DNA from: Candidatus Saccharimonadales bacterium
GTDB taxonomy: Bacteria; Patescibacteriota; Saccharimonadia; Saccharimonadales; UBA4665
Direction: 5' to 3'
Assembly: GCA_036388415.1 (NCBI GenBank)
Contig: DASVRW010000002.1
Coordinates: 417,396-481,395, forward strand
Length of the DNA stretch: 64,000 nucleotides
Position 1 is the stretch's first letter. Each line of letters starts with the position of its first letter. Position numbers and translations under genes: made by a program. The notes beneath the pieces are model-generated. The model worked only from the letters and a program-made list of their open reading frames with translations, had not been told where the DNA came from and searched no databases. This document shows positions 39,640-44,473 of this stretch, piece by piece.

Positions 39640-40569
39640 ATGCGTAAACATTCTCGTATTATTATGGCGTGTGTGGCTGTCATTGGAGCCGTGGTCGCGG
39701 CAATCGCATTACTGAGCCAGCTTAGTTTTGCGGTGCTTGATCCAGCCGGTCAAATCGCCAGTCAGCAGCGAAATCTTATAATTTTCTCCTGTCTGTTAAT
39801 GCTTTTGATTGTGATACCGGTGTTTGGCCTGACCTTTTATATTTCCTGGAAATACCGCGCCGGCAATACGAAAGCCAGGTACGAGCCGGACTGGGATCAT
39901 AATTCGCGGCTTGAGACATTATGGTGGGGCTTTCCCTGTGCAATTATTCTGGTGTTGGCAGTCGTCACTTGGAATAGCAGTCACAGCCTGGATCCGTATA
40001 AGCCTATTCAATCTGACAAAAAGCCCATGACCATCCAAGTTGTTGCCTTACAGTGGAAATGGCTGTTCATATATCCGGCCCAGCGAATCGCCAGTGTCAA
40101 CCATGTGCAATTCCCGGCTGGTACGCCGATTAAATTTGAAATAACCTCTGATGCGCCGATGAATTCTTTTTGGATTCCCCGGCTCGGTGGTCAGATATAC
40201 GCCATGCCAGGCATGACCACGCAGCTGCATTTAATGGCCGACAAACCGGGTACCTATCAGGGATCTTCGGCAAATCTGAGTGGTGCCGGCTTTGCCGCTA
40301 TGCGCTTTACTGCCACATCCAGCACGAGTGAGGATTTTGACATGTGGGTACGAACCGCCAAAATATCTCAGTACAGCAATCTCAGCCAAAACGAGTACGC
40401 AAAACTAGCCGAGCCGGCAGTCATGCCCGAACCTCGGCAATATGCCACCTATGAACGTGACCTCTATGATACAGTTGTTATGAAGTATATGGCGCATCAC
40501 GGCGTCAAACCTGCTGCCCACGGAGCTGCGACTTCTGGCAATAATATGGAATCAATGCACCATGAATAA
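39640..40569 (+). CDS. cyoA: Cytochrome bo3 quinol oxidase subunit II
   Basis: This 309-residue subunit has an N-terminal signal/anchor, a second helix (FSCLLMLLIVIPVFGLTFYI), and a cupredoxin domain with ALQWKWLFIYP, DAPMNSFWIPRLGGQIYAMPGM and TYQGSSANLSGAGF. The CuA ligands of cytochrome c oxidases are absent, which identifies a quinol oxidase. It is the first gene of cyoABCDE. The C-terminal ~35 residues are His/Met-rich (HHGVKPAAHG, NNMESMHHE), unlike E. coli CyoA, and could bind copper. Confidence 0.95.
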   Translation: MRKHSRIIMACVAVIGAVVAAIALLSQLSFAVLDPAGQIASQQRNLIIFSCLLMLLIVIPVFGLTFYISWKYRAGNTKARYEPDWDHNSRLETLWWGFPCAIILVLAVVTWNSSHSLDPYKPIQSDKKPMTIQVVALQWKWLFIYPAQRIASVNHVQFPAGTPIKFEITSDAPMNSFWIPRLGGQIYAMPGMTTQLHLMADKPGTYQGSSANLSGAGFAAMRFTATSSTSEDFDMWVRTAKISQYSNLSQNEYAKLAEPAVMPEPRQYATYERDLYDTVVMKYMAHHGVKPAAHGAATSGNNMESMHHE

Positions 40570-40593
40570 ACATCCAATCGAGGGCGCTCAACT

Positions 40594-42573
40594 ATGCTAG
40601 GCAGGCTCAATCTTGATGCATTTATGCACGACCCGGTCACCTTAGGCGGGATTATCGGTGGAGCGATCGGCTGTATCGGTCTTGTTGCTCTTATTACCTA
40701 CCTCAAGCGCTGGCGCTGGCTCTACAAAGAATGGCTGACTTCACTCGATCCGAAGAAAATCGGCATCATGTACATGTTGGTTGCTGCTTTGATGTTACTA
40801 CGCGGTGTTGCCGACGCCGTTATGATGCGTATCCAGCAGGCCATATCCGTTGGCGACGCCCAGGGTATCGTAACGAGTGACACCTACCAGCAGGTGTTCT
40901 CGGCGCATGGTACGATTATGATTTTCTTTGTTGCCATGGGATTTATGTTCGGCCTGATCAACCTGATTGTACCGCTACAGATTGGCGCCCGTGACGTTGC
41001 CTTTCCCTTCCTCAATTCTGTCAGCTTCTGGCTATTTGTCGCCGGTATGGTGCTTATCAATCTGTCTCTCGTAGTCGGCGAATTTGCCGCTGCCGGATGG
41101 CTGGCATATCCGCCGCTGTCAGGACTCAAGTACAGTCCAGGCGTCGGCGTCGATTATTGGATTTGGAGTTTGCAGATTGCGGGTATAGGTACCTTACTGT
41201 CGGGCATAAATTTCTTTGTAACAATCCTGAAAATGCGGGCACCCGGCATGACACTTATGAAAATGCCGATTTTCGTTTGGAGCGTACTCGGATCGATGTC
41301 ACTGGTTATGTTTGCTTTCCCTATACTGACGGCGACTCTTGCGATGTTATCACTCGACCGGTTAATGGGTATGCATTTCTTCACGTCTGACTACGGCGGT
41401 GATCCGATGATGTATATAAACCTCATTTGGGCTTGGGGCCACCCCGAGGTATACATATTGATATTGCCGGCGTTTGGGATATTTTCCGAAGTAGTAGCAA
41501 CATTTTCCGGCAAACGTTTATTCGGATACAAGTCCATGGTATGGGCAATCGGGGCTATTACCTTCCTGTCTTTCGTCGTCTGGCTGCATCATTTCTTCAC
41601 AATGGGTGCTGGTCCGGACGTCAATGCATTCTTTGGCATAATGACGATGATTATTGCCATTCCGACAGGCGTAAAAGTATTTAACTGGCTGTTCACGATG
41701 TACCGTGGCCGGGTCAGGTTCACGACTCCGATGCTGTGGTTTCTCGGCTTTGTTACAACATTCACGATCGGCGGGATGACAGGAGTCCTTATGTCAGTAC
41801 CAGCCATCGACTTTCAGCTGCACAACAGCCTATTTCTGGTTGCCCACTTCCACAACATGATTATCGGCGGCGTGCTGTTTGGCTATTTCGCGGGTATCAC
41901 GTACTGGTTTCCCAAGGTAGTCGGATTCCGGCTCAACGAACGTATTGGCACCTACGCTTTCTGGTGCTGGCTCATCGGCTTCCTGCTCGCCTTCCTGCCG
42001 CTCTATGCACTGGGCATCATGGGCGCGACGCGGCGACTGGATCACTATGACCCTTCCATGGGATGGCAAGGCTTGTTTATCGTTGCCGCCGTCGGTGTCG
42101 GTGTCATATGTATCGGTATCGCCATGCAGGTGCTCCAACTTGTCGTGAGCGTCGTGCAATGGCGCAGCCGCCAAGACCTGACTGGCGATCCGTGGAATGG
42201 CCGCACACTCGAGTGGTCGATCGCCTCACCAGCCCCGGCATATAACTTTGCGGTTATACCGGCAGTTACAGACCGTGATGCCTTCTGGGTTAGCAAACAA
42301 GCGAATGACCAACCAGCTCAGCTAAGCGCGTCTGATTACACGGACATCGAACTGCCGCGTAACAGCGGCATGGGATTGGCGATTGCCGGCTTCGCCGGAC
42401 TAGTCGGCTTCGGACTGATTTGGCATATCTGGTGGCTGGCAATTGTGGCGTTTATTGGTATCGTTGCCGCGATCATCATTCGTTCGATGGACGAAAACAC
42501 TGAGTACGTGATTCCAGCAGCGGAAGTACTGCGCATCGAAACGGCGCGCCGGCAAAGGATGACGGAATCATGA
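40594..42573 (+). CDS. cyoB: Cytochrome bo3 quinol oxidase subunit I
   Basis: This 659-residue catalytic subunit reduces O2 to water and pumps protons. The low-spin heme His is in [10 protein letters not shown], the CuB His-Tyr pair in [15 protein letters not shown], two CuB His in WLHHFFTMG, and the heme o3 and b His in [11 protein letters not shown]. Fifteen or so helices are present as in E. coli CyoB. It overlaps cyoC by four bases (ATGA). The E of the HPEVYI helix and the tyrosine indicate the proton-pumping A-type. Confidence 0.97.
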
Positions 42574-43181
42574 ATAAGCCGATTCGCAGCGTATCTGCCC
42601 GTCACGCCATCGTAGACGTAGACCAGTTTACCGACAAAACGACATTTGGATTTTGGGTCTATCTCATGACCGACTGCGTCCTGTTCGCGACGCTATTTGC
42701 GACCTACGCCGTGCTGCACAATAATACCAACGGCGGCCCATCTGGAGCTGAGCTGTTCAGCCTGCCGTTTGTCTTGGTCGAAACACTGCTCCTCCTCACC
42801 AGTAGCTTTACCTGTGGTCTAGCTATGCTGGCCGCCCGGCGAGCCGACAGACGACAGGTATTAGTCTGGTACGGAGTCACCTTCCTACTTGGGCTGGCCT
42901 TTGTCGGCATGGAGCTCAGCGAATTCAGCCACTTAATAGCGGAAGGCCAAAGCTGGCAGCAAAGTGGCTTTCTGTCGGCCTTTTTCACGCTCGTTGGTAC
43001 CCATGGGTTGCACATTTTAGCAGGCTTAACCTGGATGTTGGTACTTATGATACACGTAGCTAGACAGGGACTCGGCGGAAATACCTTCAAGCGCCTCACG
43101 CTGCTTAGCCTGTTTTGGCACTTGCTTGATATTGTCTGGATATTCATTTTTAGTATCGTATATTTGATCGGAGCGGCTTGA
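42570..43181 (+). CDS. cyoC: Cytochrome bo3 quinol oxidase subunit III
   Basis: This 203-residue subunit has five helices with the family blocks [32 protein letters not shown] and [11 protein letters not shown]. It is translationally coupled to cyoB and leaves one base before cyoD. Confidence 0.95.
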
Positions 43182-43182
43182 T

Positions 43183-43602
43183 ATGGCGAACTCAATTTCT
43201 GATAAATCGCACTCTCATCAGCCTGCAATCAAAGCGACGCCACCGCACACAGGGCATGCCACGCTGCGTTCCTATGTTATTGGCTACGTCCTGTCGCTAG
43301 TACTAACGATTGAAGCGTTTTTGCTCGTTACGAATCACACATTTTCGTCAAGCGTGATCATAACGACGGTTATAGTGCTTGCAATAATTCAGCTCTTCGT
43401 ACAACTATTCTTTTTCCTCCATCTCGACCGAGCAGCGAAAGCGCCGTGGAATATAAGTTTGTTTCTATTCATGGTGCTGGTAGTGCTGATCATTGTGCTC
43501 GGCTCACTATGGATAATGGGACACCTGCACTATAATATGACATCGCCAGCTGAGCTCGACCAGCGCCTGCTGAAAGAGGAAGGCATTACCAAAGGACCCT
43601 GA
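43183..43602 (+). CDS. cyoD: Cytochrome bo3 quinol oxidase subunit IV
   Basis: This 139-residue subunit has three helices, including SLVLTIEAFLLVTNH and QLFVQLFFFLHLDRA, matching CyoD. The N-terminal ~25 residues are His-rich (KSHSHQPAIKATPPHTGHA). It stops at TGA 43600-43602, two bases before the probable cyoE start, with CCC preceding the TGA. Confidence 0.92.
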   Translation: MANSISDKSHSHQPAIKATPPHTGHATLRSYVIGYVLSLVLTIEAFLLVTNHTFSSSVIITTVIVLAIIQLFVQLFFFLHLDRAAKAPWNISLFLFMVLVVLIIVLGSLWIMGHLHYNMTSPAELDQRLLKEEGITKGP

Positions 43603-43603
43603 C

Positions 43604-44473
43604 ATTACAACGTTTCAACACTATTATGCCCTGACTAAGCCTGGTATTATCCGTGGCAATCTGATTACGGCTACGGCCGGATTTTTCTTAGCTTCCGGGG
43701 GTACTATACAGCTCGGACTCTATATAGCCATATTGAGCGGCCTGGCGCTAACGATCGCCTCGGCATGCATTTGCAATAATTACCTCGACAGGCGCATTGA
43801 TCAAAACATGGAACGAACCGCATCTCGCGGGCTGGCAAGCGGTGCTATACCGATTCAAAACGCTTTGCTCCTGGCGGCCGTACTTGGTACCGTCGGACTC
43901 TGCATGCTCATCTGGTACGTCAATCTGCTGGTGGCGGCGTTAGGCATTTTCGCGTTCATCGCCTACGTTATTGTGTACGGCGCCGCAAAGCGGCGCAGCG
44001 TTCACGGTACCGTGATTGGCAGCATATCCGGCGCACTTCCACCCGTGGCAGGCTACTGTGCTGTCAGCGGCCATATCGACCTCGCCGCAGTATTACTATT
44101 TTTGATAGTAACTGCCTGGCAGATGCCGCATTTTTATGCCATCGCCCTATATCGAATGAGCGACTATAAAGCAGCCAGCATACCAGTTTTGCCGCTTGTA
44201 AAAGGCACGCGTACCACCCAATTGCACATACTGTACTACATTGGGTTATACATCGTCGCAGTAGCCGGGTTATATCTATTTGGCTACGCAAGTCTTGTTT
44301 ACCTGCTCATTAATGTCGGGCTTGGTCTGGCGTGGCTGATGATTGGAATTCGCGGGTTACAAATCCGCAGTTCAGCACAGATTGTGGCCTGGGGTCGTCA
44401 AACATTTGGTTTTTCACTGCTTGTCATAACCGGATTTTGTGGCAGCTTGATTCTTGATGCCTACATTCGTTAA
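43604..44473 (+). CDS. cyoE: Heme O synthase (protoheme farnesyltransferase), non-AUG start
   Basis: This enzyme attaches a farnesyl group to heme b to form heme O for the bo3 oxidase. Motifs are NNYLDRRIDQNMERT (NxxxDxxxD) and DYKAASIPVLPLVKG, with about eight helices. Conserved N-terminal sequence (YYALTKPGIIRGNLITATAGFFLA) extends upstream of the first TTG (43733), so the true start is earlier. No ATG, GTG or TTG exists before it in frame. An ATT at 43604 with AAAGGA seven bases upstream gives 289 residues, the normal length. A +1 frameshift from cyoD at CCC-TGA is the alternative. Confidence 0.85.
   Translation: MTTFQHYYALTKPGIIRGNLITATAGFFLASGGTIQLGLYIAILSGLALTIASACICNNYLDRRIDQNMERTASRGLASGAIPIQNALLLAAVLGTVGLCMLIWYVNLLVAALGIFAFIAYVIVYGAAKRRSVHGTVIGSISGALPPVAGYCAVSGHIDLAAVLLFLIVTAWQMPHFYAIALYRMSDYKAASIPVLPLVKGTRTTQLHILYYIGLYIVAVAGLYLFGYASLVYLLINVGLGLAWLMIGIRGLQIRSSAQIVAWGRQTFGFSLLVITGFCGSLILDAYIR

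What the first reader, a model, noticed from the sequence alone, without database searches (positions are those of the whole stretch)
43591..43735. cyoE has no ordinary start codon: ATT initiation or +1 frameshift from cyoD
Conserved CyoE sequence extends back to about 43610, but no in-frame ATG, GTG or TTG exists upstream of 43733. An ATT at 43604 with AAAGGA seven bases before it gives normal length. Alternatively the sequence AAA GGA CCC TGA C at the end of cyoD resembles a +1 slip site (CCC-U next to a UGA-C stop), which would fuse CyoD to CyoE.
Basis: partly seen in the sequence, partly recalled or inferred. Interest (0 to 1): 0.6.

Follow-up and report, generated by a model that had tools for sequence, protein, structure and literature searches.

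The report
Heme-enzyme gene with ATT start codon
In this Saccharibacteria genome the gene for a heme-making enzyme most likely starts at ATT, a weak start codon that bacteria rarely use, and several distant relatives do the same with ATT, ATC or ATA; it looks like an unusually weak start signal rather than a frameshift or a sequencing error.

Summary
cyoE (heme o synthase, last gene of a cyoABCDE operon in a Saccharimonadia genome) has no in-frame ATG, GTG or TTG between the upstream stop (43571-43573) and TTG 43733, although conserved CyoE sequence begins near 43610. ATT 43604, one base after the cyoD stop and 7 nt after AAAGGA, sits at the commonest start position of cyoE in relatives. Of 167 cyoE junctions, 10 lack any ordinary start. 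In 9 of these ATT, ATC or ATA occupies that same codon (2 of 71 when the codon is internal), behind a Shine-Dalgarno-like motif; they fall in several lineages. cyoD in the same loci never lacks a start (0 of 120). Among about 506 conserved genes compared in the window's genome, only cyoE clearly lacks one; infC, outside that comparison, starts at ATA there and at ATT/ATC/ATA across the family. The +1 frameshift is not supported: in 7 of 9 cases cyoE lies in the other frame, and the sister species lacks the slip site. Best explanation: weak AUU initiation, probably coupled to cyoD termination and sensitive to IF3. New member of a known kind; initiation itself is untested.

The parts
43183..43602 (+). 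cyoD, ubiquinol oxidase subunit IV; ATG start, TGA stop at 43600-43602; its last codons carry the Shine-Dalgarno-like motif for cyoE
   Evidence: TIGR02847 103.5 bits over cut-off 81.45; sequence
43591..43596 (+). AAAGGA, Shine-Dalgarno-like motif 7 nt before the ATT
   Evidence: sequence; computed duplex with a standard anti-SD -4.6 kcal/mol, stronger than 72% of canonical cyoE starts; 104 of 419 conserved genes in this genome have a 5-6 nt SD-like motif 3-12 nt upstream against 9 of 419 random sites
43597..43603 (+).
43604..43606 (+). ATT, proposed start codon of cyoE, one base after the cyoD stop
   Evidence: same alignment column (codon -11 from the K of the KPG motif) as the commonest start position in 167 junctions
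43604..44473 (+). cyoE, heme o synthase (protoheme IX farnesyltransferase), 289 codons from ATT, stop TAA 44471-44473
   Evidence: NF003348 315 bits and TIGR01473 264 bits, both over their cut-offs
43571..43573 (+). last in-frame stop (TGA) upstream of cyoE
43733..43735 (+). first in-frame ordinary start codon (TTG), 43 codons into the reading frame counted from ATT, inside conserved CyoE
39640..43181 (+). cyoA (39640-40569), cyoB (40594-42573), cyoC (42570-43181), all with ATG starts; cyoB-cyoC is an ATGA overlap and cyoC-cyoD is TGA T ATG, the same one-base gap as TGA C ATT at cyoD-cyoE

Best explanation
cyoE is translated as an ordinary separate protein that starts at the AUU codon 43604. 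Ribosomes finish cyoD at the UGA one base upstream, and AAAGGA in the 3' end of cyoD positions a 30S subunit (or the terminating ribosome) on AUU, where initiator tRNA pairs with a third-position mismatch. The start is weak, so CyoE, an enzyme needed in small amounts, is made below the oxidase subunits CyoA-D. Shown: no ordinary start, AUU and an SD-like motif in the right place, and the same arrangement with AUU, AUC or AUA in relatives. Inferred: that initiation happens there, that it is weak and coupled to cyoD, and that IF3 limits it as it does infC in other bacteria.
For: No ATG/GTG/TTG in frame. AUU lies at codon -11 from KPG, the commonest position of canonical starts in relatives. Ten of 167 junctions lack an ordinary start; in 9 of them AUU/AUC/AUA is at -11, against 2 of 71 junctions where -11 is internal (Fisher p about 2e-9, not corrected for relatedness). 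The sister species has AUC, also 7 nt after AAGGA. All 9 have an SD-like motif stronger than 72-96% of canonical cyoE starts. The state changes at least 7 times on the CyoE tree, so it is not one inherited error. Controls: cyoD lacks a canonical start in 0 of 120 loci, and no other conserved gene of this genome was found that clearly does. infC here begins with ATA, and 27 of 30 relatives' infC genes have ATA/ATC/ATT at the same codon, so this class of start is used in the lineage; IF3 is encoded. Published precedent: S. aureus AUU/AUA starts of cvfC1, ccpN and citZ give about 10% of AUG (PMC13009471).
Against: No protein, ribosome-profiling or read-level data. The unusual start is not conserved across the class: most relatives use ATG, GTG or TTG, so a regulatory role is unproven. 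The SD-like motif is moderate, whereas the published S. aureus cases have extended ones. One related locus (L111) has GTA rather than AUH at the position, and one (L162) has no clear SD. No 16S 3' end was found in the fetched sequence to confirm the anti-SD.
Confidence: 0.88

Rival explanations
1. Programmed +1 frameshift: ribosomes slip from CCC to CCU at the UGA and continue into cyoE, giving a CyoD-CyoE fusion.
For: The sequence AAA GGA CCC TGA C is present and cyoE is in the +1 frame. No conserved gene in the survey ends in CCC (0 of 506, about 3 expected from codon usage).
Against: The sister species L002 ends cyoD with CTG TAG, 19 nt before its ATC. In 7 of 9 relatives with the same missing start cyoE is in the -1 frame, so a +1 slip cannot reach it. 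A C-terminal proline is shared by related CyoD tails and coded CCA, CCG or CCC, which explains the CCC without slippage. prfB in this genome is one open frame, so it gives no +1 frameshift precedent here. SD and CCC are adjacent, without the 3-nt gap known from E. coli prfB (general knowledge).
Confidence: 0.04
2. Sequencing or assembly error: the true codon is ATG, or an indel hides an in-frame start.
For: The genome is an assembly whose reads could not be examined.
Against: Nine loci from different assemblies show the same absence, always with AUH at the same codon, in several lineages. The reading frame is otherwise intact.
Confidence: 0.04
3. Another near-cognate codon is used, such as ACG 43610 or CTG 43631, or the gene starts at TTG 43733 and makes a shortened protein.
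For: These codons exist in frame.
Against: CTG and TTG have no SD-like motif in place and would cut off conserved sequence, TTG removing the KPG region that all relatives keep. AUH at -11 recurs across relatives without an ordinary start, whereas no single alternative does.
Confidence: 0.03

Closest known systems
infC (IF3) with AUU/AUC/AUA start, the classic IF3-discriminated gene
   Same: AUH start after an SD-like motif, no ordinary start in frame; present in the same genome (ATA) and family
   Different: In infC the unusual start is nearly universal in the family and known in E. coli to serve autoregulation; in cyoE it is occasional
pcnB of E. coli, AUU start that limits expression (Binns and Masters 2002, as cited in PMC13009471)
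   Same: AUU as a weak start that keeps an enzyme low
   Different: pcnB was tested by experiment; the cyoE start is inferred and follows directly on an upstream stop codon
S. aureus cvfC1 (AUU), ccpN and citZ (AUA) (PMC13009471)
   Same: AUH starts selected by SD; reporters give about 10% of AUG
   Different: Extended SD motifs; start-site ribosome peaks seen for cvfC1 and ccpN
Streptomyces sigR, GTC start repressed by IF3 (PMC5472188)
   Same: Non-canonical start that sets the ratio of products of one operon
   Different: GTC codon; the IF3 effect was shown by mutation
Touching stop-start gene pairs (ATGA, TGATG) with termination-reinitiation (PMC6728339)
   Same: cyoD stop and cyoE start nearly touch (TGA C ATT) or overlap (ATAA, ATAG, TAATT in relatives)
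   Different: The start codon at the junction is AUH instead of AUG

Membership tests
Genes with IF3-discriminated AUU/AUC/AUA starts (infC/pcnB kind) | No ATG, GTG or TTG in frame that could give the conserved protein | tested here: met
Genes with IF3-discriminated AUU/AUC/AUA starts (infC/pcnB kind) | AUH codon at the expected start position behind a correctly spaced SD | tested here: met
   ATT 43604, AAAGGA 7 nt upstream; same codon column as canonical starts in relatives
Genes with IF3-discriminated AUU/AUC/AUA starts (infC/pcnB kind) | Unusual start kept in relatives | tested here: inconclusive
   kept as AUC in the sister species and as AUH in several other lineages, but most relatives have ATG/GTG/TTG
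Genes with IF3-discriminated AUU/AUC/AUA starts (infC/pcnB kind) | IF3 encoded by the organism | tested here: met
   TIGR00168 match at G000:C2:1085750-1086238, 181 bits, cut-off 60
Genes with IF3-discriminated AUU/AUC/AUA starts (infC/pcnB kind) | Initiation at the codon shown, with output rising when IF3 discrimination is weakened | not testable with these tools
   needs reporters, ribosome profiling or proteomics
Programmed +1 frameshift (prfB kind) | Slippery codon next to a stop, downstream gene in the +1 frame | tested here: met
   CCC TGA C at 43597-43603, cyoE in +1
Programmed +1 frameshift (prfB kind) | Slip site and frame relation conserved in relatives with the same gene layout | tested here: not met
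   sister species has CTG TAG; 7 of 9 AUH cases are in the -1 frame
Translationally coupled stop-start gene pairs | Stop of the upstream gene within a few nt of the downstream start | tested here: met
   TGA 43600-43602, ATT 43604
Translationally coupled stop-start gene pairs | Downstream translation depends on upstream translation | not testable with these tools
   needs reporters with an early stop in cyoD

The most novel reading that the evidence does not exclude
cyoE in Saccharibacteria is a recurrent target of IF3-limited initiation besides infC, so that heme o supply, and with it terminal oxidase assembly, follows the cell's initiation-factor balance; AUA overlapping the upstream stop (AUAA, AUAG) would be a distinct form of weak coupled start.
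Probability: 0.15. Interest if true: 0.6.

Novelty: new member of a known kind. Interest (0 to 1): 0.4.

Why it matters
Few bacterial genes besides infC have documented AUU/AUC/AUA starts, and gene callers that look only for ATG, GTG and TTG would lose or truncate them. A repeated switch to AUH starts in one gene, across several Saccharibacteria lineages, offers a natural set for asking whether such starts are tolerated drift in a low-demand enzyme or selected for low output. It also shows that comparing junctions across relatives can separate weak initiation from frameshifting or sequence error without reads.

Tried and rejected
Frameshift fusion: rejected on frame and slip-site comparison. 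Genome-wide relaxation of start codons: rejected; the other flagged genes had short gaps or, where I read them through, an ordinary start just downstream of a spurious upstream alignment. The first unfiltered survey was swamped by antisense shadow frames and was replaced. RNA structure at the junction: nothing unusual (z 0.26). A search for a published non-canonical cyoE start found none in the open-access library. The 16S 3' end was not found in the fetched sequence. tRNA genes were listed but not used further.

Full report
The window lies in a Saccharimonadia (Patescibacteria) genome, G000:C2:417396-481395 (related loci are titled Candidatus Saccharibacteria). At 39640-44473 there is a complete cyoABCDE operon; all five products match their NCBIfam models above cut-off (CyoA 313.9/266, CyoB 1062/1020, CyoC 265/224, CyoD 103.5/81, CyoE 315/285 bits). 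Such operons in soil Saccharibacteria are published and thought to be laterally acquired (PMC8407418).

Observation. cyoD ends with TGA at 43600-43602. In the cyoE frame the last upstream stop is TGA 43571-43573 and the first ordinary start is TTG 43733, 43 codons after the ATT and inside conserved sequence. ATT 43604 stands one base after the cyoD stop and 7 nt after AAAGGA. The cyoC-cyoD junction has the same geometry with an ordinary start (TGA T ATG at 43179-43185), and cyoB-cyoC is an ATGA overlap.

Relatives. I collected cyoE with its upstream region from the family, order and class and aligned frames on the KPG motif. Of 171 distinct junctions (167 after removing four unsuitable ones) 10 have no ATG, GTG or TTG in frame before KPG: the window (ATT), its sister species L002 (ATC), L026, L047, L057 and L132 (ATA), L094, L098 and L103 (ATT), and L162 (unclear). 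In the first nine, AUH is at codon -11, which is also the commonest position of canonical starts (41 of 139 chosen starts). When codon -11 is internal it is AUH in 2 of 71; Fisher p is about 2e-9, which ignores relatedness. On a CyoE tree built without the N-terminal columns the state changes at least 7 times, and neighbours of AUH loci often have TTG, GTG or ATG at or near the same codon; within one genus (g8) L093 and L104 have TTG and L107 has ATG where L094, L098 and L103 have ATT. So the unusual start has arisen, or been lost, repeatedly.

Stop-start layout. In L026 and L047 the cyoD stop overlaps as ATAA, in L057 and L132 as ATAG, in L094, L098 and L103 as TAATT; in L002 the ATC is 19 nt past the stop with its own AAGGA. 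cyoE is therefore in the -1 frame relative to cyoD in 7 of 9 AUH cases and +1 in 2. A +1 slip cannot explain the group. The proline before the stop (CCC in the window, CCA or CCG in others) is part of a shared CyoD tail. prfB in this genome is a single open frame.

Controls. cyoD in the same loci, tested in a similarly lax way, has an ordinary start available in 120 of 120. Comparing all stop-to-stop frames of G000 with 0.8 Mb of G004 (same genus), about 506 conserved genes were tested. 24 were flagged, most by short gaps that I take to be alignment run-on; the flagged frames with larger gaps that I read through had an ordinary start downstream, except cyoE. I did not inspect every flag by hand. 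infC lies outside the compared part of G004; its G000 copy starts with ATA after GAGGAGA, and 27 of 30 relatives show ATA, ATC or ATT at the same codon (in three of them an ordinary codon is also nearby; the remaining three were misanchored by my script). IF3 is encoded. SD-like motifs are used in this genome: 104 of 419 genes against 9 of 419 random sites.

Interpretation. The best-supported reading is AUU initiation, SD-guided and probably coupled to cyoD termination. Reporter work in S. aureus found AUU/AUA starts at about 10% of AUG (PMC13009471); Streptomyces sigR uses a GTC start repressed by IF3 to set stoichiometry (PMC5472188); reinitiation at touching stop-start pairs is widespread (PMC6728339). 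By analogy CyoE would be made below the oxidase subunits. That last step, and any role of IF3, is inference. Because most relatives keep ordinary starts, tolerated drift in a low-demand enzyme is at least as likely as selected regulation.

Limits. No reads, proteomics or ribosome profiling were available; the statistics treat related loci as independent; several genomes are fragmented assemblies; the literature search covered open-access papers only.

Noticed in passing
G000:C2 about 1085750-1086260, minus strand (outside the window): infC begins with ATA after GAGGAGA and has no ordinary start; across the family infC has ATC, ATA or ATT at the same codon, so IF3 autoregulation by a weak start may hold in Saccharibacteria.
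   Followed up: partly
L111 (G121:C93 near 247370): cyoE has GTA overlapping the cyoD stop (GTAG) where relatives have ATA, and the only ordinary start is an ATG 60 codons upstream inside cyoD; start unclear.
   Followed up: partly
L162 (G325:C80): cyoE without an ordinary start, without a clear SD and without cyoD directly upstream; ATT codons at -12 and -10.
   Followed up: no
L004, L058, L164: Apparent intermediate states: ATAG or GTAG at codon -11 plus TTG two codons on, or ATAATG, suggesting that the start site slides by a codon or two.
   Followed up: no
L034 (JAJFUY010000227.1): A contig titled Chlamydiales bacterium carries a cyoE that nests among the Saccharibacteria copies in the tree (48% identity to the window); misbinning or lateral transfer.
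   Followed up: no
43570-43599 and relatives: Several CyoD proteins share a C-terminal tail like IIKDEGIxP whose Asp-Glu-Gly codons double as the SD of cyoE.
   Followed up: partly
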